From Ryuthela nishihirai (taxonomy: Eukaryota; Arthropoda; Arachnida; Araneae; Heptathelidae), in NCBI GenBank assembly GCA_038380435.1, contig JAWZYU010000006.1:36706501-36770500 (forward strand): DNA of 64,000 nt. Reading direction: 5' to 3'. Positions 11,657 to 62,000 of this stretch are shown here, one piece after another. The translations under genes were made by a program, and so were the position numbers. The notes below the pieces were generated by a model. It saw only the letters and a program-made list of their open reading frames with translations, searched no databases and had not been told where the DNA came from. Positions within the stretch are counted from its first letter, which is position 1; the number at the start of each line of letters is the position of its first letter.

Positions 11657-12094
11657 CAGTCGCTCAAAAAAGTATCCGAACACTATGGTTGATTAGAGAA
11701 TTCAGAATAAATATCTGGCAACGATTTTTTTAGAAATTAGTGATCTGGCAACCTTCGTGTCATGTGATTACAGAATTCAGGAAAAATATCTGGAGCGTGT
11801 ACAGCAACTGTACACGCTCCAGTTACCGTTCACAGCAAACTGGAGCGTGTGCAGTTACTGCACACGCTCCAGTTTTGCTGTGAACGGTAACTGCACACGC
11901 TCAATATTTCTGTGAGTGGGCCCACACGATCCAGGTTTAGAAATTAGCGATCTGGCAACCTTCGTGTCAAAAAAAATATCCGAACAGTGACACGAAGGTT
12001 GCCAGATCACTAATTTCTAAAAAAAATCTTTGCCAGATATTTTTTCTGAAATCTCTAATCAACCATAGTGTTCGGATACTTTTTTGAGCGACTG
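11657..12094. mobile_element. 438-bp foldback element with long terminal inverted repeats and TA ends
   Basis: Begins CAGTCGCTCAAAAAAGTATC and ends with its reverse complement, flanked on both sides by TA (11655-11656 and 12095-12096). The terminal inverted repeats run about 105 bp with few mismatches. The interior holds two further hairpins: ggagcgtgtaca with its complement around 11792-11820, and a larger one from gttaccgttcacagcaaa to its complement around 11822-11890. No coding capacity. TA ends suggest a non-autonomous Tc1/mariner-type element. Confidence 0.85.
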
Positions 12095-13149: not shown

Positions 13150-13278
13150 CCCCAACATTTGTTGCCATATTGTCCCAAGCTGCATCCTTCTGATGCATCT
13201 TGGACACATTTTTTTTCGCGTTATCCCCAAGCTACATCCTTCTGATGCAGCTTGGGGACAACGCGAAGAAAATGTATG
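13150..13278. repeat. Alternating inverted copies of the mariner 5' end
   Basis: A short unit around GATGCAGCTTGGGGACAA appears four times in alternating orientation: near 13170 (reverse), 13187 (forward), 13225 (reverse) and 13245 (forward). The last copy reads into the mariner-like frame. The outer pair extends through cgcgaagaaaatgt and its complement. A C tract at 13140-13154 lies beside it. Confidence 0.65.
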
Positions 13279-14450
13279 CCGATTTATCACAAGTATATGG
13301 GGATCATGCCTGTTCATACGGCACTGTTAAGGGATGGATGCGCAAATTCAGAGAAGGATGCCAGAGTTTCGAAGACCTCCCTCATGTAGGAAGACCGAAT
13401 GAGGCGTGAATGAGAGAACCATTGCTGCAGTTCGTGGACACATTAAGGAAAACCTACAAATAACCTTTGAGGTAATAAATTCAGGTGTCAGTGTGGAAAC
13501 AATTATTCATCAACGTTTAAAATTCCGAAAGAGTTGGGTTGGGTTGTTTTACCTCTGAGCGGCACGTTTTTGCACACCATGGGCTAAATGGCCAGGTCAC
13601 ACGGACCCCGAAGGCTCAGAGAAGGTTGGGGGAGGGGACCCATTGGAACAGCTGTTCGGAGACAGATGATCGTCTCCCGTCAAGGCCATCCAGCGTGTTC
13701 TTTAACGTGCACAGGGTACGGCTCTCCCGCACACGGGGCCACGGCTTAACGGCCCATCCGACGGACGGCGGATGGGCCGTTAAGCCGTGGCCCCGTGGTA
13801 AAGCCGCCATCCGACGGACGGCGGCTTTTACCAAGCCCATCGGTGTCCCCTACTGACCGTGGGCAGAGCGGGGAATTTTGCGGAGATAAATCTCAACGCT
13901 GACCCAGCTGGGAGTCGAACCTGGGAACTACAGATTACGAGCCTAGCGCGCTACCGACTGAGCCACCCCCGCCCCGGTCCCAATCGGTTAACAGGCATTG
14001 TCACAGGTAATGAGACTTGATTCTATTGTAACTCCCAGAAAGATCGATCACTATGTTTTGGTTGAAGAAGATGAAGCGTGTCTCCAAATCCTCCTACAAA
14101 ATTTTCGCACAAGAAAGAAGGTGTTCACAATTTTTTTTAACTCCCAAAGAGTTGTAGCCGTGGACAAACTTACCTGGAAAAATGACTATAAGCCAATTCC
14201 ATACCAGCATTGTTTTGCCTAAAATGGTTCGGGAGTTAAAGGATCCAACAACAAGTGTGTCAAGGGTTCTCCTTCTTCCTGACAATGCCAGTGCTCACAA
14301 AACCAGACAAGTCACAGCCTATCTAAAGCAGGAAATAAATCAAACAGCCTGCACATTCACCCGATCCTGCACCATGTGATTCTTGGTTATTTACAAAAAA
14401 TTAAAATGGAACTTGCCGTGATACCTTATTCAAGGATTCAAGACCGTGCA
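13240..14450 (+). pseudogene. Mariner-like transposase relic
   Basis: The first part reads MQLGDNAKKMYADLSQVYGD, then a helix-turn-helix-like region (TVKGWMRKFREG) to a stop at 13409, and continues to 13530. A SINE-A (13533-13976) splits it. It resumes at 13977 with LTGIVTGNET followed by a stop: in mariners this is TGDETW, so the first catalytic Asp has become Asn and the Trp a TGA. Further on come LLLPDNASAH (second catalytic Asp kept) and, after a frameshift, SPDPAPCD (third position). At least two frameshifts and several stops make it dead. Its 3' half is duplicated at 15894-16367. Confidence 0.72.
13533..13976 (-). mobile_element. SINE-A with internal palindromic insertion
   Basis: Longer than the family norm because the central domain has an inverted self-copy. 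Perfect 28-bp arms lie at 13732-13759 and 13770-13797 around a 10-bp loop. A smaller near-palindrome (ggtaaagccgcc and ggcggcttttacc) follows. Left end of the recombination described at 13674-17507. Confidence 0.88.
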
Positions 14451-14614
14451 AAATGTTTTCATTGAGTTGCGGAGTATTCCCCACCACTAAGCTTTCTAGA
14501 ATTGGCATAGACGTCTGCAACTTTGCATAAATGCTGGAGGGGAATACTTTGAAGGGAAGTAAAAGTCTTGTTGAAGTAAGTTCAATGGTATTTGTTCTGC
14601 AGATTCATGTCAGG

Positions 14615-15004
14615 GTTGGGTTGTTTTACCTCTGAGCGGCACTTTTTTGCACACCATGGGTTAAATGGCCAGGTTACATGGACCCCGAAGACTCATAGTA
14701 GGTTGGGGGAGGGGACCCACTGGAACAACTGTTGGGAGACAGATGGTAGCCTCCCGTCAAGGGACGGCCATCCAGCGTGTTCATTAACGTGCACAGGGTA
14801 TGTCTCTCCCGCACACGGGGCCACGGCTTAACGTCCCATCCGACGGACGGCGGTCTTTCCAAGCCCATCGTTGTCCCCTACTGACCGTGGGCAGGGCGGG
14901 GAATTTTGCGGAGATAAATCTCAACGCTGACCCAGCTGGGACTCGAACCTGGGAACTACAGTTTGCGAGCCTGGCGCGCTACCGACTGAGCCACCCCCGC
15001 CCCG
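14615..15004 (-). mobile_element. SINE-A, full length (unit 1 copy)
   Basis: TSD catgtcagg (14606-14614 and about 15008-15016), extendable to 12 bp with one mismatch. It carries a 5-bp extra ggacg in the segment gtcaagggacggccatcc. Duplicated at 16532. Confidence 0.9.
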
Positions 15005-15443
15005 ATGCATGTCAGGAACTTTTTGAACGCTCATCGTATTTCCACTAATTCAGGTAAGCTTAGATTAATTTCTCATAATTTCTTTTTGGTCACGAAAAAT
15101 ACTCATCGTTAATGTAGACTTTCACTTTCGGATTTAATGACGAAATTTGAAAGAAGGATGTTTGTGAACTGAATATAAAAATTCGAAATTAAGCATTTTT
15201 ACCAATACTTAGTGCGTTATTTTGTAAAATTATTATTCGTGTGAATACTTTACGAATAAACTGTATTTAACTTATATAATAGTCTACAAAGTTAAATTTG
15301 TTGTTAAAATGAAATAAAACTCAGGTTTTCCGTAGCCAGAAAGAATTCAATCGAGAAAAGTCTAATATCGATACCAACCCAAAACAAGTTTAATTTCATT
15401 AAAATGTCATGCGACAGAGTGCATTACAGTACCAAGAATACAA
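15005..15443. other. AT-rich stretch, nothing recognised (unit 1)
   Basis: Non-coding, AT-rich. Repeated identically at 16922-17360. Confidence 0.5.
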
Positions 15444-15455
15444 TTTCAGCGAAGG

Positions 15456-15893
15456 TTGGGTTGTTTTACCTCTGAGCGGCACTTTTTTGCACACCATGGG
15501 CTAAATGGCCAGGTTACATGGACCCCGAAGGCTCAGAGAAGGTTGGGGGAGGGGACCCACTGGAAGAGCTGTTAGGAGACAGATGATAGCCTCCCGTCAA
15601 GGCCATCCAGCGTGTTCTTTAACGTGCACAGGGTACGGCTCTCCCGCACACGGGGCCACGGCTTAACGGCCCATCCGACGGACGGCGGATGGGCCGTTAA
15701 GCCGTGGCCCCGTGGTAAAGCCGCCATCCGACGGACGGCGGCTTTTACCAAGCCCATCGGTGTCCCCTACTGACCGTGGGCAGAGCGGGGAATTTTGCGG
15801 AGATAAATCTCAACGCTGACCCAGCTGGGAGTCGAACCTGGGAACTACAGATTACGAGCCTAGCGCGCTACCGACTGAGCCACCCCCGCCCCG
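15456..15893 (-). mobile_element. Chimeric SINE-A at the duplication junction
   Basis: The left flank is tttcagcgaagg (15444-15455), which is the TSD of the SINE at 17373. The right flank is the mariner sequence that follows the SINE at 13533. Left-half variants (ggttacatgg, gaagagctgttaggagac) match the 17373 copy. The right half carries the palindromic insertion of the 13533 copy (arms 15649-15676 and 15687-15714). It therefore lacks its own matching TSD pair. Confidence 0.9.
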
Positions 15894-16367
15894 GTCCCAA
15901 TCGGTTAACAGGCATTGTCACAGGTAATGAGACTTGATTCTATTGTAACTCCCAGAAAGATCGATCACTATGTTTTGGTTGAAGAAGATGAAGCGTGTCT
16001 CCAAATCCTCCTACAAAATTTTCGCACAAGAAAGAAGGTGTTCACAATTTTTTTTAACTCCCAAAGAGTTGTAGCCGTGGACAAACTTACCTGGAAAAAT
16101 GACTATAAGCCAATTCCATACCAGCATTGTTTTGCCTAAAATGGTTCGGGAGTTAAAGGATCCAACAACAAGTGTGTCAAGGGTTCTCCTTCTTCCTGAC
16201 AATGCCAGTGCTCACAAAACCAGACAAGTCACAGCCTATCTAAAGCAGGAAATAAATCAAACAGCCTGCACATTCACCCGATCCTGCACCATGTGATTCT
16301 TGGTTATTTACAAAAAATTAAAATGGAACTTGCCGTGATACCTTATTCAAGGATTCAAGACCGTGCA
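15894..16367 (+). pseudogene. Mariner-like transposase relic, duplicated 3' part
   Basis: Second copy of the 13977-14450 segment, with the same TGNET-stop lesion and the same frameshifts. It has no 5' half because the duplication began inside the SINE. Confidence 0.7.
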
Positions 16368-16531
16368 AAATGTTTTCATTGAGTTGCGGAGTATTCCCCA
16401 CCACTAAGCTTTCTAGAATTGGCATAGACGTCTGCAACTTTGCATAAATGCTGGAGGGGAATACTTTGAAGGGAAGTAAAAGTCTTGTTGAAGTAAGTTC
16501 AATGGTATTTGTTCTGCAGATTCATGTCAGG

Positions 16532-16921
16532 GTTGGGTTGTTTTACCTCTGAGCGGCACTTTTTTGCACACCATGGGTTAAATGGCCAGGTTACATGGAC
16601 CCCGAAGACTCATAGTAGGTTGGGGGAGGGGACCCACTGGAACAACTGTTGGGAGACAGATGGTAGCCTCCCGTCAAGGGACGGCCATCCAGCGTGTTCA
16701 TTAACGTGCACAGGGTATGTCTCTCCCGCACACGGGGCCACGGCTTAACGTCCCATCCGACGGACGGCGGTCTTTCCAAGCCCATCGTTGTCCCCTACTG
16801 ACCGTGGGCAGGGCGGGGAATTTTGCGGAGATAAATCTCAACGCTGACCCAGCTGGGACTCGAACCTGGGAACTACAGTTTGCGAGCCTGGCGCGCTACC
16901 GACTGAGCCACCCCCGCCCCG
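16532..16921 (-). mobile_element. SINE-A, full length (unit 2 copy)
   Basis: Identical to the copy at 14615 including the 5-bp insertion and TSD. It arose by segmental duplication, not by a new insertion. Confidence 0.9.
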
Positions 16922-17372
16922 ATGCATGTCAGGAACTTTTTGAACGCTCATCGTATTTCCACTAATTCAGGTAAGCTTAGATTAATTTCTCATAATTTCT
17001 TTTTGGTCACGAAAAATACTCATCGTTAATGTAGACTTTCACTTTCGGATTTAATGACGAAATTTGAAAGAAGGATGTTTGTGAACTGAATATAAAAATT
17101 CGAAATTAAGCATTTTTACCAATACTTAGTGCGTTATTTTGTAAAATTATTATTCGTGTGAATACTTTACGAATAAACTGTATTTAACTTATATAATAGT
17201 CTACAAAGTTAAATTTGTTGTTAAAATGAAATAAAACTCAGGTTTTCCGTAGCCAGAAAGAATTCAATCGAGAAAAGTCTAATATCGATACCAACCCAAA
17301 ACAAGTTTAATTTCATTAAAATGTCATGCGACAGAGTGCATTACAGTACCAAGAATACAATTTCAGCGAAGG

Positions 17373-17756
17373 TTGGGTTGTTTTACCTCTGAGCGGCACT
17401 TTTTTGCACACCATGGGCTAAATGGCCAGGTTACATGGACCCCGAAGGCTCAGAGAAGGTTGGGGGAGGGGACCCACTGGAAGAGCTGTTAGGAGACAGA
17501 TGATAGCCTCCCGTCAAGGCCATCCAGCGTGTTCTTTAACGTGCACAGAGTATGGCTCTCCCGCACACGGGGCCACGGCTTAACGTCCCATCCGACGGAC
17601 GGCGGCCTTTCCAAGCCCATCGGTGTCCCCTACTGACCGTGGGCAGGGCGTGGAATTTTGCGGAGATAAATCTCAACGCTGACCCAGCTGGGACTCGAAC
17701 CTGGGAACTACAGATTACGAGCCTGGCGCGCTACCGACTGAGCCACCCCCGCCCCG
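17373..17756 (-). mobile_element. SINE-A, full length, right parent of the recombination
   Basis: Intact 12-bp TSD tttcagcgaagg at 17361-17372 and 17757-17768. It has a normal central domain without the palindromic insertion. Confidence 0.92.
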
Positions 17757-22232: not shown

Positions 22233-22447
22233 GGTTAGTTTGTTTTACCTCTGAGCGGCACTTTTCTTGCAAAAAATGGGCTAAATGGCCAGGTCACAAG
22301 GACCCCGAAGGCTCAGAGAAGGTTGGGGAGAGGGGACCCTCTGAACAGCTGTTGGGAGATAGATGGTAGCCTCCAGTCAAAGCCATCCAGCGTGTTCTTT
22401 AACGTGTAAAGAGTATGGCTCTCCCGCACACGGGGACACGGCTTGAC
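22233..22447 (-). mobile_element. SINE-A 3' part of a dimer
   Basis: Tail through the central domain, stopping at acacggcttgacg where another tail starts. Confidence 0.75.
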
Positions 22448-22742
22448 GGGTTGGGTTGTTTTACCTCTGAGCGGCACTTTTTTGCACACCATGGGCTAAA
22501 TGGCCAGGTCATATGGACGCCGAAGGCTCAGAGAAGGTTGGGGAAGGGGACCCACTGGAACAGATGTTAGGATACAGATGGTACTCCCGTCAAGGCCATC
22601 GAACGTGTTCTTTAACGTGCACAGGGTATGGCTCTCCGCACACACAGTCACGGCTTAACGTCCCATCCGACGGACAACGGCCTTTTCTAGTCCATCGGTG
22701 TCCCCTACTGACCGAGGGCAGGGCGAGAAGTTATGCGGTTTA
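22448..22742 (-). mobile_element. SINE-A, 5'-truncated, second unit of a dimer
   Basis: A new tail ggttgggttgttttacc directly follows the previous unit. It ends at aagttatgcggttt without the tRNA head. Confidence 0.78.
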
Positions 22743-32309: not shown

Positions 32310-32600
32310 CCGGGGGATGGATCAGTCCGTAGCGCGCTAGGCTCACAATCTCCAATTCTCATTTTCGAGTCCCACCTGGGCCAGCATTTGAGATTTATCT
32401 CCGCAAAGCTCCGAGCCCTCGGTCAGTAAAGACATCGATGGGATTGGGAAAGCCGCCGTCCATCTGATGGGTTGGGTTGTTTTACCTGTGAGCGACACTT
32501 TTTTGTACACTGTGGAATTTTGGTACACTATCATCTGTCTCCCAACAGCTGTTCCAGTGGGAGGAGATCCACTGGAACAGCTGTTGGGAGACAGATGGTT
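32310..32600 (+). mobile_element. SINE-A, rearranged, with a 29-bp palindrome
   Basis: A head and central domain (plus) run to catctgatggg. A reverse-orientation tail follows (gttgggttgttttacctgtg to 32520). After that comes a perfect inverted repeat with arms 32532-32560 and 32569-32597 around an 8-bp spacer. Confidence 0.78.
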
Positions 32601-33954: not shown

Positions 33955-35050
33955 CACTGAGCGTGAATATAAATAAGTATATTTTACAATACAAATTACA
34001 ATACAATGCAAATTATTACAAAAGTATGGATGAAATAACTGAAAAACAAACTAAATACCATCGTACATAAAGTAACTTTTTCCTATAGAACAGTTAAGAC
34101 TAGCTCTGTCCGACTAAATTACTTTTATTACTCTTCACTTTGATTGTCATGTCTCGTGAATATCTGGGGTGGGGGTGGCTCAGTCGGTAGCGCGCCAGGC
34201 TCGTAATATGTAGTTCTCAGGTTCGAGTCCCAGGTGGGTCAGCGTTTAGATTTATCTCCGCAAAATTCCCCTCTCTGCCCACGGTCAGTAGGGGACACCG
34301 ATGGGCTTTGAAAGGCCGCCGTCCGTCGGATGTGATGTTAAGCCGTGAATGGGGCGGGGGTGGCTCAGTCGGTAGCGCGCCAGGCTTGTAATCTGTAGTT
34401 CCCAGGTTCGAGTCCCAGCTGGGTCAGCGTTGAGATTTATCTCCGCAAAATTCCCCTCTCTGCCCACGGTCAGTAGGGGACACCTATGGGCTTGGAAAGC
34501 CCACCGTCCGTCGGTTGGGATGTTAAGCCGTGCCCCCGTATACGGGAGAACGATACTCTGTACACGTTAATGAACACGCTGGATGGCCTTGACGGGAGGC
34601 TACCATCTGTGTTCCAACAGCTGTTCCAGTGGGTCCCTCAACTTTCTCAAACTCCTCAAACTTTCTCTGAGTCTTCGGGGTCCATGTGACTTGGCCATTT
34701 AGCCCATTGTGTGCAAAAACGTCCCGCTCAGAGGTAAAACAACCCAACTCTTGAATATCTTTCGGCGTAAACAATCCTTTTATATCACTGGATTTCACAC
34801 TAAACAACCACCCACGCACTCACCAGATAAAAATATATCTTCTTTTTGACTATCGTGCACTGACTAAGACTATTTATGCCTCCTTTTAGATCTCCACAAC
34901 TTTAACATTGTAGTTCTGTCATTCTTATCTTCAGATCGGTTTTATGTTCAAATTCGTTTGTTTACATAAATCTCACGCAGAAGCATAGGCAAGCGTTCAT
35001 GTCACGTTTTTCATAAAGTCACTGCAACACGTTCGTAACAATGTGAATCG
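33955..35050 (+). repeat. Interspersed repeat copy 1 (related to 49130-50430)
   Basis: Outside the SINE dimer, shared phrases with the 49-50 kb copy occur in the same order: gcaaattattacaaaagtat, aacaaactaaatac, cactcaccagataaaaatat, cgcagaagcata, gcgttcatgtcacgttttt and acacgttcgtaacaat. No open frame or terminal repeat seen. Confidence 0.6.
34166..34751 (+). mobile_element. SINE-A dimer inside one TSD
   Basis: A first unit of about 180 bp (head plus half the central domain, 34166-34348) is fused to a second full-length unit (34349-34751). One 9-bp TSD, tgaatatct (34157-34165 and 34752-34760), flanks the whole dimer, and none separates the units. Confidence 0.85.
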
Positions 35051-43589: not shown

Positions 43590-45262
43590 TGTCTGAATTG
43601 TGGCAAGTCAGTGTTAATTTTCCCTTGAATTGGCCAACTCTCCTTAATTTCACAAAACCAATCGCAATCGTTACATCTCTCCTAAATTTACCAAGTTACT
43701 TCAAAATTATCAAAATCCCCAATATTTTGCCAGGGTGTCTCGATTTTCGTCTACTCTCCTTAATTTCACAAACTCAGTCATCACACCTCACCTATCACCA
43801 AGTGGATTCGAATTTTGCCAACTCCCTTACATTTTGCCACTCTCCGTAATTTTACAGAAAAAAATTGCAATTTTTACATCTTCTCTGAATTTCCCAAGTC
43901 ACTTCGAATTTTATCAACTCTCCTTAATTGCACAAGAAACGCACAATTTTCACAACTCCCCTGTATTTTACCAAGTGGATTCAAATTTTGCCAAGTTTTC
44001 TCGATTTTGTCAACTCTTCTTAATTTCACAAAAACAATCCCAATTTACTCAAATCGCCCGTATTTTACCAAGTGGATTCGAATTTTGCCAACTCCACTAG
44101 ATTTTGCCAAGTTTCCTCGATTCTGCCATCTCGCCACAATTTAACAGAAAAAAAATCCAAATTTTTACATCTCACCTGATTTTTGCAATGTCACTCTGAA
44201 TTTTGCCAGATCCCCCAAGATTTGCGAACTCTCCTAGATATTGCGAAGTTGATTCGATTTTTCCAACACGCCATAATTTTACGGAAAAAAAGACTGCAAT
44301 TTTTACATCTCACCTGAATTTTGTCAACTCCCCACAATTTTGTCAAGTCACTCCGAATTTCGCCAACTTCTCCTAGATTTTCGGGGCGGGGATCGCTCAG
44401 TCGGTAGCGCGTCAGGCTCGTAATCTGCAGTTCCCAGGTTCGAGTCCCAGCTGGGTCAGCGTTGAGATTTATCTCCGCAAAATTCCCCGCCCTGCCCACG
44501 GTCAGTAGGGGACACCGATGGGCTTGGAAAGGCCGCCGTCCGTCGGATGGGACGTTAAGCCGTGGCCCCGTGTGCGGGAGAGGCATACCCTGTGCACGTA
44601 AAAGAACACGCTGGATGGCCTTGACGGGAGGCTACCATCTTTCCCAACAGCTGTTCCAGTGGGTCCCCTCCCCCAACCTTCTCTGAGCCTTCGGGGTCCA
44701 TGTGACCTGGCCATTTAGCCCATTGTGTGCAAAAAAGTGCCGCTCAGAGGTAAAACTACCCAACCTTAGATTTTGCCAACTCGCTAAGTTTTGCCAAGTC
44801 ACTCCGCAACTCCCCACAATTTTGCCAACTGTCCCTAGATTTTGCCAACTCAACCCGCAACTCCCCACAATTTTGCCAACTGTCCCTAGATTTTGCCAAC
44901 TCAACCCGCAACTCCCCACAATTTTGTCAACTGTCCCTAGATTTTGCCAACTCCCTAAGTTTTGTCAACGTGACATAATTTTACAGAAAAAAAATCAAAA
45001 TTTTTACATCTCACCTGAATTTTGCCAACTCCCCAAGATTTTGCCAAGTTGTCCCAATTTTGCAAACTCACCTGTTTTTACTAAGTGGCTTCGAATTTTG
45101 CCAACTGCTCTAAATTTTGCCGTCTCTCCATTTTCCATACTGCCTTAGATTTGCCAAGTTGCCTCGATTTTGACAACTCCCCTTAATTTTGCAAAATAAA
45201 ATATTACAAATTTTCACAACTCATCTAGATTTTACCAAGTCGCTTCGAATTTTGCCAACTCC
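43590..45262. repeat. Degenerate minisatellite, TTTTGCCAA-based
   Basis: Outside the SINE at 44382-44766, a unit of about 20-28 bp recurs dozens of times, with a core like aattttgccaactcccctag. There are higher-order blocks: taattttacagaaaaaaa followed by ttttacatctcacctgaatt recurs near 43850, 44130, 44275 and 44970. About 51-bp repeats (cgcaactccccacaattttg and following) run three times at 44812-44960. Confidence 0.8.
44382..44766 (+). mobile_element. SINE-A in the minisatellite
   Basis: Full length. TSD tagatttt (44374-44381 and 44767-44774), drawn from a minisatellite unit. Confidence 0.9.
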
Positions 45263-45791: not shown

Positions 45792-46572
45792 GGGGCGGGG
45801 TGGCTCAGTCAGTAGCGCGCCAGACTCGTAATCTGTAGTTCCCAGGTTCGAGTCCCAGCTGGGTCGGCGTTGAGATTTATCTCCGCAAAATTCCCCGCCC
45901 TGCCCACGGTCAGTAGGGGACACCGATGGGCTTGGAAAGGCCGCCGTCCGTCGGATGGGGTGTTAAGCCGTGGCTGCGTGTGCGGGAGAGCTATACCCTG
46001 TGCACGTTAAAGAACACGCTGGATGGCCTTGACGGGAGGTTACCATCTGTCTTCCAACAGCTGTTCCAGTGGGTTGGGTTGTTTTACCTCTGAGCGGCAA
46101 TTTTTTGCACACCATGGGCAAAATGGCCAGGTCACATGGACCCCGAAAGCTCAGAGAAGGTTGGGGGAGGGGACCCACTGGAACAGCTGTTGGGAGACAG
46201 ATGGTAGCCTCCCGTCAAGACCATCCAGCGTGTTCTTTTACGTGCACAGGGTATGCCTCTCCCGCACACGGAGCCACGGGTTAACGTCCCATCCGACGGA
46301 CGGCGGCCTTTCCAAGCCCATCGGTGTCCCCTACTGACCGTGGGCAGGGCCGGGAATTTTGCGGAGATAAATCTCAACGCTGACCCAGCTGGGACTCGAA
46401 CCTGGGAACTACAGATTACGAGCCTGGCGCGCTACCGACTGAGCCACCCCCGCCCCTTGTTCCAGTGGGTCCCTTCCCCTAACCTTCTCTGAGTCTTCGG
46501 GGTCCATGTGACCTGGCCATTTAGCCCATGGTGTTCAAAAAAGGCCGCTCAGAGGTAAAACAAACCAAACCA
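45792..46572 (+). mobile_element. SINE-A, interrupted
   Basis: Outer halves at 45792-46073 and 46458-46572. A minus-strand SINE-A is inserted at tgttccagtggg. Confidence 0.85.
46074..46457 (-). mobile_element. SINE-A, nested in another SINE-A
   Basis: TSD tgttccagtggg (46062-46073 and 46458-46469). Full length, with opposite orientation to its host copy. Confidence 0.92.
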
Positions 46573-47617: not shown

Positions 47618-48230
47618 TGGATTGTTTTACCCTGAGCAACAATTTTTTTTATACAATGGGCTAAAGACAAGGTCAAAAAGATCCCGAGGGCTCAGAGATG
47701 GGTTGGGTTGTTTTACCTCTGAGCGGCACTTTTTTGAACACCATGGGCTAAACGGCCAGGTCACAAGGACCCCAAAGGCTCAGAGAAGGTTGGGGGAGGG
47801 GAACCACTGGAAGAGCTGTTGGGAGACAGATGGTAGCCACCCGTCAAGGCCATCCAGCGTGTTCTTTAACGTGCACAGGGTATGGCTCTCCCGCACACGG
47901 GGCCACGGCTTAACGTCCCATCCGACGGACGGCGGCCTTTCCAAGCCCATCGGTGTCCCCTACTGACCGTTGGCAAGGCGGCGAATTTTGCGGAGATAAA
48001 TCTCAACGCTGACTCAGCTGGGACTCGAACCTGGGAACTACAGATTACGCGCCTGGCGCGCTACCGACTGAGCCACCCCCGACCCGAGGGCTCAGAGAAG
48101 AATTGGGGAAGGGGATCCACTGGATAGCTGTTAAGAGAGACTGTAGCCTTCTCACAAGGACATCCGGGTTGTTCTTTAACGTGCACAGGTATATTCTTAT
48201 TATGACTCTCCTGCACACGGAGACATAAAT
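47618..48230 (-). mobile_element. SINE-A, old, interrupted
   Basis: Outer parts at 47618-47698 and 48083-48230, highly diverged, split by a younger copy. Confidence 0.7.
47699..48082 (-). mobile_element. SINE-A, nested in an older copy
   Basis: 16-bp TSD cccgagggctcagaga (47683-47698 and 48083-48098), itself SINE sequence. Full length. Confidence 0.92.
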
Positions 48231-49855: not shown

Positions 49856-50241
49856 TGGGGCGCGGGTGGCTCAGTCGGTAGCGCGCCAGGCTCGTAATCT
49901 GCAGTTCCCAGGTTCGAGTCTCAGCTGGGTCAGCGTTGAGATTTATCTCCACAAAATTTCCCCGCCCTGCCCACGGTCAGTAGGGGACACCGATGGGCTT
50001 GAAAAGGCCGCCGTCAGTCGGATGGGACGTTAAGCCTTGGCCCCGTGTGCGGGAGAGCCATACCCTGTGCACGTTAAAGAACACGCTGGATGGCCTTTAC
50101 GGGAGGCTACCATCTGTCTCCCAACAGCTGTTCTAGTGGGTCCCCTCCCCCAACCTTCTCTGAGCCTTCGGGGTCCATGTGACCTGGCCATTTAGCCCAT
50201 GGTGTGCAAAAAAGTGTCGCGCAGAGGTAAAACAATCCAAT
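49856..50241 (+). mobile_element. SINE-A, full length
   Basis: 11-bp TSD ctttatacacc (49845-49855 and 50242-50252). Confidence 0.92.
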
Positions 50242-54654: not shown

Positions 54655-56315
54655 ACATCGAAGAGACAAAACATTATGACCAGCACGTCTTTATGCAAAT
54701 CGAAGCAACTGCATGTAAACGACGGCGCGTGTGAAGGTCATGAAACGGTATAAATAATACCTGATACTGAGCTCTGTTAATAGGTATTATTCTTGTTCTT
54801 CAGATGGGAAAGGCAGCGGACTTAAGTGTTCGGTTAAGTTGTTTTACCTCTGAGCGACACTTTTTTGCACACCATGGGCTAATTGGCCAGGTCACAAGGG
54901 TTGGGTTGTTTTACTTCTGAGCGGCACTTTTTTGCCCACCATGGGCTAAATGGCCAGGTCACATGGACCCCGAAGGCTCAGAGAAGGTTGGGGGAGAGGA
55001 CCCACTGGAACAGCTGTTGGGAGACAGATGGTAGCCTCCCGTCAAGGCCATCCAGTGCGTTCTTTAACGTGCATAGGGTATGGCTCTCCCGCATACGGGG
55101 CCATGGCTTAACATTCCATCCGACAGACGTCGGCCATTCCAAGCTAATCGGTGTCTCCTACTGAGGATTTCAAGGCAGGGAGTTTTGCGGAGATAAATCT
55201 CAAAGCTGACCCAGGTGGAACTCGAACCTGGGAACTACAGATTACGAGCCTGGCGCGCTACCGACTGAGCCACCCCCACCCCATACGGACTTAAGTGAGT
55301 TTGACAAAGGCCAAATTGTAATGGCCAGACGACTGGGTCAGAACATTTTCGAAATGGCAAGGCTTGTGGGGTGCTTACGGTCAACCGTGGTTAGTACTTC
55401 AAAAAGTGGTCAGAGGAGGGAAAGACCACGAATCGCCGGCAAGGTATGGGTCGACCACGACTCTTCGATGCCAGAAGTGAGCGAAGGCTATCCTGTATGG
55501 TACGAGCCACCAGAAAAGATACTATGGCGCAACTAGCCCGTAATTTGAATGCTGGTAATGGCAGTAATGTGTCGCAACACACACTACATCGAACCCTGCT
55601 GAAAATGGCGCTGCGTAGCTGCAGGCTGCTCGGATGCCCATGCTAACCTCGGTTCACCGTTGAAAGCGCCTACAGTGGGCACAGAGCATCAAAACTGGAC
55701 CTTGAATAATTGGAAGAAGGTCGTCTGGTCCGATGAATCTCGTTTCCTGTTGCGCCATGTGGATGGCCGGGTACGTTTACTGGGGAACCAGGATGCACTG
55801 TGAGAAGAAAACAAGCCGGTGGAGGAAGTGTATTACTTTGTGCAATGTTCTGCTGGGAAACTCTGGGTCCAGTCATTAATGTGCAGGAAACTATGATGTC
55901 TACCACCTACCTAAGCATCATTGCAGACCAGGTACATCCTTTTATGACAACGGTATATCACTCTGTAGCGACTTCTTTTAGCAGGTTAATGCGCCATGCC
56001 ACACTGCCCGGATTGTTCAAGAATGGTTTGCGGAACATGAGGAAGACTTCCAGGTATTGCCCTGGACTCCAAATTCCCCAGACATCAATCCAATCGAGCA
56101 TCTGTGTGTTGGAACAGCAAATCCGATCTAGGAGGGCTCAACACGTAATTTAGAAGAGTTAAAGGATCTGCTGTAACGTGTTGGTACCAGATACCACAAG
56201 ACAACTTTAGAAAATCTTATAGCATCCATGCCTCGCCGGGTAAGAGCTATTTTGGCAGCACGTGGAGGACCAACATCAAATGAGGCAGGTGGTCATAATG
56301 TTTTGGCTTTTTAAT
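54655..56315 (+). mobile_element. Tc1-like element, dead, split by a SINE-A dimer
   Basis: The terminal inverted repeat core caaaacattatgacca (54667-54682) has its complement at 56290-56305. The transposase frame starts MGKAADL, then [15 protein letters not shown] after the SINE insertion. Further on it contains VVWSDESRF (first catalytic Asp present). The second catalytic Asp is replaced in QVNAPCHTA (normally QDNA), and WFAEHEEDFQVLPW then SPDINPIEH holds the catalytic Glu. There are several frameshifts, for example after 55640 and around 55800. Not functional. Confidence 0.85.
54829..55285 (-). mobile_element. SINE-A dimer inside one TSD
   Basis: A roughly 70-bp 3'-end unit (54829-54899) is fused to a full-length unit (54900-55285). 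One perfect 12-bp TSD, cggacttaagtg (54817-54828 and 55286-55297), flanks the pair. In element orientation it is full copy then partial 3' end. Confidence 0.9.
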
Positions 56316-59010: not shown

Positions 59011-62000
59011 ATCTTCATCATCATAATCCTCAAGCAGCCATGGGCTACGGAGGTCCAACCAGACCGCGCAGTTTAATTATCCAAGCATATCTGTCCTGAG
59101 CTACATCTGCTGCATCCGGCCACTGCACACCAATTCTAACAAGGTCCTGTTTGACATTGTCTGCCCACCGCATCCTAGGTCTCCCCCTCCTTCTGAGGCC
59201 TCTAGGCACACTGTTCATAACGCTATTCGCCAATCTATAATTATCCATACGGGCAACTTGTCCAAACCAGCGGATTCTCTGTCTGCACAATATGCTGTTT
59301 AAAGGATGTTGCGACTCCTTTGCCTAACCTTATCATTACTTGCAAAGCTGAACCACCTAATGCCCAAGATACTGCGTAAGCATCTAGAATCAAAAACATC
59401 TAGTTACCTGTTATCTTGTTTACAAAGTGTCCACATTTCACTACCATAACTAACCCTAGAAAGAACCAAACTATTATACAGTCTAATTTTAGTCTTTAGG
59501 TGTATACGCCTATTTCTCCACACTCTCCATAGATTCTTAAAAGTCCCGGCAGCAATCCCTATTCTTCTCTTAATCTCATGCCGCACATCACCATTATCTG
59601 TTACATAGCTCCCAAGATAATTAAACTTTGACACCTGTTCAAGATTGCAACCATTCAGATTAACTGAATCACAGCTTGCTTGACCAATTTTCATCATTTT
59701 AGTTTTCTCTCTGTTTATAACCAACCCTACTCTAGTGCCAGTTTCATCAACAGCTCGAATGAAAGAGTTCATCTCATCAACATCATCTGCCAAAATGGCT
59801 ATATCATCAGCACAATCTAAATCAGAAATTTTCGTATCTCCAGCCCATTTAAGGCCAAAATCTTTCCCTTGAAGTGAATTTCGCATAACATAATCAATAA
59901 TCAAACTAAAGAGAAAAGGAGACAAAATTCACTCTTGTCGAACACCAGAAGTAATGCTAAACCAATTGCTACAAGACTTACCAACTCTCACACTTATTAT
60001 AGAGAACTTTCATTATGTTAACTAACTTGTCTGGTATACCTTATGATCACACAATCAACCACAAATTATGACGATCAACAGAGTCGAAAGCCTTTTTGAA
60101 ATCAACAAAGCTAGCAACCAAAGGTTTCTGAAACTCTAAACATTTCTCAAGAATCTGCCTAAGTGAAAATATCTGATCTACACATCCCCTACCACTTCTG
60201 AATCCATATTGCTCATCACGCAATTGACTGTCAACCAGATTCTTAATTCTATTAAGCACAATCATGGAAAGAACTTTACCAGGAACAGAGAGTAAGCTGA
60301 TACCCCTATAGTTATCACAAGAACTACGATCACCTTTTTTGAAAATAGGGATAATAATAGCGCTGGTAAAATCTTTAGGAACCACATCTTTATTATAAAA
60401 GTTACTCAAAATTTCAGTCATCCAAGTGGTAACCGAAACATTCCTAGCTCTGAGCATTTCTGTAGCAATTTCATCTACCCCTGAGGATTTATGAAGTTTA
60501 AGTTTAGAAATAGCCAAAATAACTTAAAATTGTGTTATAGGGACAATATTAAAGCCAGTAATGCATCTATCATCATTGCAAACAATGGGAGTAGAACCAA
60601 CTACACTGTTTAGAACATCAGTGAAATGCTCAGCCCACCTAGCCATGACAGAATCTTCCCCTTCTATAACTTTACCTTGTTTATCCTTCAATCCCTGTAT
60701 AGCTGTCCGTTTTCTACCACATAAAACATTAACTATCTGGTACAGCTCTCTGCTGTTGTGCTGCCTAACTGCTTCCTCAGCTTCGTCAGCCAAGTCATCA
60801 AGCCAACGATTCTTATCAGTATAGTCTGTAATCCTTTCTATTAGGACTAGTAGGGTACTGATTAAGGACATTCCTGCAGTTCCTTCTTTCTGAAATAAGC
60901 TCAAGTGCCTTATCACTTAAATAAATCTGGCTCCTCTCCTCCTTTTTTCCTAAAAGAGTACTGTTAGTGTCCAAAAAAGCCTGTTTAAAATGATCCCATT
61001 CTTCCTCAACTTCAGTAGTAAGCAAACCATGGTTCTCATGATGACTAAGTAACCTATCATGGTAAGCTTTAGCTATAACTGGATCTTTCAGAGCTTCAGT
61101 ATTAAAGGTAAATTTTTTAAATTTAGCACAACACTCTTTAAGTTTAAGTTGCAAGACACTTTTAACAAAGTAAGGGTCAGATCCAATTTCAGCTCCCCTA
61201 TATGCCCTGGTATTTCTAACAGAACTAGCCCATTTGCTGATGATTAATATATAATCGATCATATTTTTATTCAGCCCATCAGGTGAAACCCATGTGTACT
61301 TATGCATGTTGCGGTGTTTGTAATAAGTGTTAGTTATTATGAAGCCATTGAGTTTAATTACCTGTAGGAGATGTTGCCCATTGCCATTGCAGCTGCCAAT
61401 ACCAAAAGGACCTATCACCCCTCCCCAAAGGTCAGAGTCAGTACCAACTTTGGCATTGAAGTCACCTAGAACAAGGGTAATATCTCCTTTCTTGACAGAA
61501 TTCAAAATATCCTGAAGTTGTCCGTAAAAAACGTTTCTCTCATCATCATCAGCATACTCAGTGGGGGCATAACAGCAGATAACATTCAAGTCTTTAATGC
61601 TTGTCTGAAATTTTGCTGTAAGAAACCTTTCATATCCTAGAAGAGCATCACCAGCATGTCTGCTGAGCAGCAGATCTACGCCTTGGTGATGCTTTCCATC
61701 CTCCCTCCCTCCCTGTGTAGAGAATTTTAAAGTTATTTTTAAGTATCTCACTTTTACCTGTCCATCTGGTCTCTTACAAGCCTAGAATATCTAGGTTATA
61801 GCGCTGGAATTCCTGCGTGAGGACATCAAGAGAATAATCTCTATGTAATGTCCTCTCGTTCCTGCAGAGAGAAAATGATTAGTAGGATTTTTAAAGAAAT
61901 TAGGTTTATTGAGATTGGTAGGGCCAACAATATCAAACAGCCTCCTGATTGCAGGCATGGGGCAAAGACCTGTTCCTCCTCCGCTAAAGGCTGAAGTCAC

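What the first reader, a model, noticed from the sequence alone, without database searches (positions are those of the whole stretch)
13674..17507. Unequal recombination between two SINE-A copies, breakpoint resolved to about 40 bp
Seen directly: two 1,917-bp units in tandem. The SINE at the junction is a chimera. Its left half and left flank (including the TSD sequence tttcagcgaagg) match the SINE at 17373. Its right half (including a private 28-bp palindromic insertion) and right flank match the SINE at 13533. Diagnostic bases switch between 15590 and 15632. This is the expected product of non-allelic homologous recombination. The near-perfect identity between units implies a very recent, perhaps still polymorphic, event.
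Basis: partly seen in the sequence, partly recalled or inferred. Interest (0 to 1): 0.82.

Follow-up and report, generated by a model that had tools for sequence, protein, structure and literature searches.

The report
Recent SINE-mediated tandem duplication, 1.9 kb
Two neighbouring copies of an abundant mobile element, probably in an animal genome, recombined out of register and left a perfect 1.9-kb tandem duplication; this is a clean example of a known kind of accident, not a new mechanism.

Summary
Positions 13674-15631 and 15591-17548 are identical over 1,958 bp, giving two head-to-tail units of exactly 1,917 bp. The SINE at the junction (15454-15893) is a one-switch chimera. All 8 diagnostic substitutions on its left match the right-hand SINE (S5, 17371); all 10 on its right, plus a 54-bp insertion, match the left-hand SINE (S1, 13537). 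The switch lies in a 41-bp tract, 15591-15631. A second marker gives the direction: S1 sits inside a mariner whose 5' part matches once and whose 3' part matches twice. S5 has a 12-bp target-site duplication on both sides; the chimera has none. Best explanation: homology-directed unequal exchange between two same-orientation SINEs. Crossover and replication template switching cannot be told apart from the junction. One detail was wrong: the insertion is 54 bp, not 28. Recency is supported (0 differences in 1,917 bp); polymorphism was not testable. Assembly error is unlikely on sequence grounds but only reads can exclude it. Size, junction homology and element similarity resemble human Alu-mediated rearrangements (PMC9675761, passages). 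Ordinary in kind.

The parts
13674..15590 (.). Tandem unit 1 (1,917 bp; boundary free to slide within the 41-bp shared tract)
   Evidence: 0 mismatches to unit 2
15591..17507 (.). Tandem unit 2 (1,917 bp)
   Evidence: 0 mismatches to unit 1
13537..13976 (-). S1, left parental SINE, carrying a 54-bp insertion; no TSD found; inside a mariner copy
   Evidence: Sense strand inferred from the tRNA-like head of another copy
14614..15004 (-). S2, passenger SINE in unit 1, TSD GATTCATGTCAGG/GATGCATGTCAGG
   Evidence: the same TSD mismatch is in both units
15454..15893 (-). Chimeric junction SINE: S5-type left of 15591, S1-type right of 15631
   Evidence: 8 of 8 left and 10 of 10 right diagnostic substitutions, plus the 54-bp insertion
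15591..15631 (.). 41-bp tract in which the exchange took place
   Evidence: Identical in S1, chimera and S5; second longest of 11 S1/S5 exact tracts of 12 bp or more
16531..16921 (-). S2', copy of S2 in unit 2
   Evidence: 100% to S2 over the two reported pieces
17371..17756 (-). S5, right parental SINE
   Evidence: 12-bp perfect TSD TTTCAGCGAAGG on both sides
15444..15455 (.). TSD sequence of S5 at the left edge of the chimera, with no partner on its right
13732..13828 (.). Two adjacent hairpins made by the 54-bp insertion in S1 (arms 32 and 14 nt; the first arm is ordinary SINE sequence)
   Evidence: -56.8 kcal/mol as ssDNA over 13730-13840, z -12
15649..15745 (.). Same hairpins in the chimera
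   Evidence: offset 1,917
13245..13530 (+). Mariner 5' part (about residues 16-116 of P0056), matched once
   Evidence: HTH_48 E=1.2e-07; tblastn E 2e-21 and 5e-06
13976..14556 (+). Mariner 3' part (about residues 149-352 of P0056) in unit 1, frameshifted and with stops
   Evidence: tblastn, best piece E=1.5e-25
15893..16473 (+). Mariner 3' part, second copy, in unit 2, with no 5' part beside it
   Evidence: tblastn

Best explanation
A single locus originally held, in order, a mariner remnant split by SINE S1, passenger SINE S2, about 0.45 kb of other sequence, and SINE S5. S1 and S5 have the same orientation and lay 1,917 bp apart, start to start, before the event. They paired in register on sister chromatids or homologues and exchanged within a 41-bp identical tract. 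One product is the tandem duplication seen here, with a chimeric SINE at the junction; the reciprocal product would be a 1,917-bp deletion. Shown from sequence: the duplication, the chimera, the 41-bp interval and the direction. Inferred: that the exchange was a crossover, and when it happened.
For: 1,958-bp perfect repeat. Single switch, 8/8 and 10/10 diagnostic substitutions plus the 54-bp insertion. Left half of the chimera is 100% S5 (next best of the other aligned copies 98.5%), right half 100% S1 (next best 75.6%, insertion counted). S5 has a 12-bp TSD (score 12) while the chimera scores 0; the 99th percentile of 1,332 swapped flank pairs is 6. Mariner 5' part matched once, 3' part twice. 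Parameters resemble human TE-mediated rearrangements: duplication median 1,085 bp, 91% of deletions and duplications between same-orientation TEs, TE similarity median 82.6% for homology-driven events (PMC9675761, passages). S1/S5 identity is 83.6% counting the insertion.
Against: The 41-bp tract is short: a passage of PMC9675761, cut at its start, speaks of more than 100 bp of perfect identity being needed and favours RAD51-independent routes for most such events. S1 and S5 were not the best-matched pair: of 16 same-strand full-length pairs within 2 kb before duplication (S1/S5 among them), 12 share an exact tract longer than the 42 bp of S1/S5. S1 itself scores 0 for a TSD. No reads, no second individual and no related genome could be examined.
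Confidence: 0.62

Rival explanations
1. Replication-based template switching (break-induced replication, MMBIR or serial slippage): a stalled or broken fork at one SINE restarted in the homologous position of the other, copying the unit a second time.
For: Gives the same junction. The exact tract is short, and the majority of human homology-driven TE rearrangements have under 40 bp (PMC9675761, passages). A strong hairpin begins 18 bp beyond the tract in S1.
Against: No inserted bases or extra templates at the junction; the switch is clean and in register. This does not exclude the rival.
Confidence: 0.24
2. Assembly artefact: one real unit was traversed twice, or two haplotypes were laid in tandem.
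For: The copies are perfectly identical, as a doubled graph path would be. The switch tract is an exact repeat, where a short-word graph could loop.
Against: No N in the window, whereas gaps between copies and, for the main class, haplotype differences are named as marks of false duplications (PMC9516828, passages). The window holds 34 of 45 same-strand full-length SINE pairs within 5 kb that share 41 bp or more (this count includes pairs made by the duplication itself); with the chimera and S2' removed, 26 of 38 share more than 42 bp. Exact repeats outside the duplication reach 146 bp. It is an inference that a short-word assembler would have broken at many of these.
Confidence: 0.11
3. Excised circular DNA (a 1.9-kb circle made by S1 x S5 recombination) reintegrated by homology next to an intact locus.
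For: Would give the same tandem structure and the same chimera (reasoning, no call).
Against: Needs two events where one suffices; no sequence trace distinguishes it.
Confidence: 0.03

Closest known systems
Human Alu/Alu transposable-element-mediated rearrangements (TEMRs), duplication class (PMC9675761, passages read)
   Same: Same-orientation SINEs, chimeric SINE, kilobase-scale duplication, tens of bp of exact junction homology, comparable element similarity (83.6% here with the insertion counted)
   Different: Different SINE family (tRNA-headed, about 386 bp) in an unidentified organism; the junction SINE carries a private hairpin
Alu/Alu recombination reporter products (PMC4356517, abstract and passages)
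   Same: Single chimeric element formed in register between diverged copies
   Different: Those are induced deletions in cultured cells; here it is a duplication found in a genome sequence
LINE-LINE non-allelic homologous recombination (PMC4344489, abstract and passages)
   Same: Ectopic exchange between dispersed repeats; breakpoints mapped to 80 +/- 53 bp there, 41 bp here
   Different: Longer substrates there (1 kb of homology or more discussed), enriched at 96% identity

Membership tests
SINE-SINE mediated tandem duplication (NAHR/TEMR-HR) | Direct tandem copies whose boundaries fall at the homologous position in two same-orientation repeats | tested here: met
SINE-SINE mediated tandem duplication (NAHR/TEMR-HR) | Junction element is a single-switch chimera of the two outer elements | tested here: met
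   8/8 and 10/10 diagnostic substitutions plus insertion
SINE-SINE mediated tandem duplication (NAHR/TEMR-HR) | Outer contexts are ancestral, junction context is derived | tested here: met
   Mariner 5' part once, 3' part twice; S5 TSD. Caveat: S1 itself has no TSD and about 32-35 mariner residues are missing there relative to P0056
SINE-SINE mediated tandem duplication (NAHR/TEMR-HR) | Reciprocal deletion allele, or pre-duplication allele, in the population | not testable with these tools
   No reads or other individuals; the search of the own genome did not complete
False (assembly) duplication | Gap between copies | tested here: not met
   No N in the window
False (assembly) duplication | Reduced read depth | not testable with these tools
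   No reads held
tRNA-derived SINE (the elements) | tRNA-like head | tested here: met
   By tool in two copies only: ARAGORN tRNA-Thr at 49859-49932 and Rfam tRNA at 45794-45866, exactly at its threshold. The other copies share the head by sequence similarity
tRNA-derived SINE (the elements) | Many copies with target-site duplications | tested here: met
   84 HSPs, 37 full-length, 35.6% of the window; TSD in 24 of 37 by an automatic rule, S2 and its duplicate both counted
tRNA-derived SINE (the elements) | Mobilised by a partner LINE with a shared 3' end | not tested
   A broken LINE lies at 59404-61781 but its 3' end was not compared

The most novel reading that the evidence does not exclude
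The 54-bp hairpin-forming insertion in S1 made that SINE fragile, and a break there, not sequence identity, chose this poorly matched pair. The 1.96-kb perfect repeat now seeds a copy-number-variable array: a nascent satellite unit born from dispersed SINEs and still polymorphic.
Probability: 0.1. Interest if true: 0.45.

Novelty: new member of a known kind. Interest (0 to 1): 0.22.

Why it matters
It is a clean worked example of how dispersed SINEs produce tandem duplications, in a SINE-packed window of an unidentified genome. Both parents, the direction and a 41-bp interval are readable from one window. If polymorphic, it would be a handy marker of ectopic exchange. The hairpin beginning 18 bp beyond the exchange tract makes a small testable case for structure-provoked recombination between repeats. 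No ORF of 150 aa or more lies in the duplicated segment, so no functional consequence is claimed.

Tried and rejected
Organism: not identified. A 29-base SINE pattern had 0 exact matches in viral contigs and 0 in genome contigs. An endonuclease ORF of a LINE in the window returned 55 relatives; those with organism names are from several animals (fish, nematode, sea cucumber, insects), and the identities listed run from 29 to 45%. This suggests an animal but no taxon.

Own genome: the request did not complete, so copy number elsewhere and any unduplicated allele were not examined.

Mariner flanks: Pfam matched only the left HTH piece; the second left piece and the right-flank pieces had no family (1 of 4 pieces matched at or above its cut-off; 0 of 4). 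Solved-structure sequences gave nothing useful (3 hits: 41 hits, mostly antibody light chains, both judged chance; none). The link rests on P0056, the one protein found, with three pieces compared singly and tblastn. Weak tblastn matches of P0056 elsewhere in the window (E 0.36 or more) were treated as chance.

Hairpin-triggered break: kept only as the novel reading. The paper on quasi-palindrome fragility speaks of inverted repeats of about 100 bp or more each (PMC3855049, passages); here the longer arm is 32 nt. The scan of palindromes (arms of 18 or more, spacer up to 20) ranks one other place higher, 11936-12021, with a wider spacer. That S1 is one of the two SINEs involved is a post hoc coincidence of roughly 2 in 35 full-length copies (my arithmetic).

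TSD rule: automatic, and it misses at least one evident case by eye (52827, CTCTCCTGA), so 24 of 37 is a low count. Divergence figures used 34 of 37 full-length copies: one below 82% identity, the chimera and S2' were dropped.

Literature: seven searches were answered (two returned no paper) and one was rejected for a term. No claim is made that anything is absent from print.

Full report
Observation. Comparing the window with itself at an offset of 1,917 shows no mismatch from 13674 to 15631. The two copies, 13674-15631 and 15591-17548, overlap by 41 bp, giving two head-to-tail units of exactly 1,917 bp. The next longest direct exact repeat found is 146 bp, and the longest inverted one 145 bp, so chance or ordinary SINE similarity is excluded.

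The elements. A SINE of about 386 bp gives 84 HSPs covering 35.6% of the window, 37 of them full-length by the rule used. The 34 copies used for divergence lie 0.8% to 20.5% from their consensus, with a median pairwise substitution difference of 6.5%. By an automatic rule 24 of 37 (S2 and its duplicate both counted) have a target-site duplication scoring above the 99th percentile of 1,332 swapped-flank comparisons. The rule misses at least one copy by eye.

The chimera. Thirty-six full-length copies were aligned. S1 (13537) and S5 (17371) differ at 18 substitution columns plus a 54-bp insertion in S1. The junction SINE (15454) carries the S5 base at all 8 columns up to 15590, and the S1 base at all 10 columns from 15632, with the insertion. 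Its left half is 100% S5 (next best copy 98.5%), and its right half 100% S1 (next best 75.6%, the insertion counted). The exchange lies within 15591-15631. That tract is the second longest of 11 exact S1/S5 tracts of 12 bp or more (41 bp; the longest is 42).

Direction. S5 has the same 12-bp TSD on both sides, while the chimera has that sequence on the left only. S1 scores 0 for a TSD, so its status needed a separate test. Its left flank holds a Mos1-type HTH_48 domain (E 1.2e-07); Pfam matched none of the right-flank pieces. A search with the broken transposase pieces, joined with X, found one relative, P0056 (353 aa, 42% identity, 99% of the query covered). By tblastn, residues 16-116 of P0056 lie left of S1 and match significantly once in the window (E 2e-21 and 5e-06), whereas about residues 149-352 lie right of S1 and again right of the chimera (best piece E 1.5e-25 each). 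S1 therefore sits inside one mariner copy, with about 32-35 residues missing at the site, and the second 3' part is derived. The passenger SINE S2 carries the same TSD mismatch in both units, so that mutation predates the duplication.

Age. With 0 differences in 1,917 bp, the 95% upper bound on divergence is 0.16%. Twenty-three detected TSD pairs differ at 12 of 299 bp, 4.0%, so the duplication looks far younger than typical insertions. The TSD figure is shaped by the detection rule, and gene conversion could also keep the units identical. Whether the duplication is polymorphic was not testable.

Artefact. There is no N in the window. With the chimera and S2' removed, 26 of 38 same-strand full-length SINE pairs within 5 kb share an exact tract longer than 42 bp, yet no other exact repeat found in the window exceeds 146 bp. 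A short-word assembler loop is thus a poor explanation, by inference. False duplications as described in PMC9516828 (passages) show gaps between copies, haplotype differences in the main class, or low depth. The first two are absent here; depth could not be seen.

Mechanism. Same-orientation elements, an in-register chimera and tens of bp of exact homology fit the homology-driven class of human TE-mediated rearrangements: duplication median 1,085 bp, 91% of deletions and duplications between same-orientation TEs, TE similarity median 82.6%, the majority with under 40 bp of homology (PMC9675761, passages). That paper argues most such events are RAD51-independent, so a replication template switch remains a real rival. 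In reporter cells divergence lowers Alu/Alu exchange (PMC4356517, abstract and passages). Against a simple rule of best match, 12 of the 16 same-strand full-length pairs within 2 kb (S1/S5 among the 16) shared longer exact tracts than S1/S5.

The insertion. The S1 insertion is 54 bp net. It forms two adjacent hairpins with arms of 32 nt (97%) and 14 nt (93%). The stretch 13730-13840 folds at -56.8 kcal/mol as single-stranded DNA (z -12), against -10.8 for the shorter homologous stretch of S5 (65 against 111 nt). The first hairpin arm begins 18 bp beyond the end of the exchange tract; that arm is ordinary SINE sequence, and the inserted bases lie further right. The insertion predates the duplication, because both S1 and the chimera carry it. 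That it provoked the exchange is speculation: its arms are far shorter than the roughly 100 bp or more described as a threat to stability (PMC3855049, passages).

Verdict.

Noticed in passing
13732-13828 and 15649-15745: A 54-bp insertion makes two adjacent hairpins inside a SINE. By eye, four substitutions of S1 from consensus (chimera positions 15669, 15743, 15744, 15747) improve the palindromes, suggesting template-switch or foldback copying; the alignment there is not unique.
   Followed up: partly
1-64000: One SINE family covers 35.6% of 64 kb with 37 full-length copies. My impression is that this is very dense; no other genome was compared and the species was not identified.
   Followed up: partly
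46072-46456 and 47701-48086: SINEs apparently inserted into SINEs: by eye their TSDs (TGTTCCAGTGGGT and CCCGAGGGCTCAGAGA) resemble the SINE consensus.
   Followed up: partly
2202-2755, 22233-22738, 34166-34748, 54832-55282: Head-to-tail full or partial SINE pairs; nested insertion and older unequal exchange were not separated.
   Followed up: no
43811-45192: Diverged tandem arrays built on ATTTTGCCAACTC-like words, units of about 18 to 137 bp, with a SINE at 44382-44765 among them.
   Followed up: no
59404-61781, minus strand: Broken LINE with endonuclease (just under Pfam's cut-off) and reverse transcriptase pieces; whether it is the partner of the SINE was not tested.
   Followed up: partly
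49859-49932 and 45794-45866: ARAGORN tRNA-Thr (cgt) and an Rfam tRNA match at threshold coincide with ends of SINE copies, so they are probably SINE heads and not tRNA genes.
   Followed up: partly
11936-12021 and 32530-32599: Other palindromes with 34-nt and 32-nt arms.
   Followed up: no
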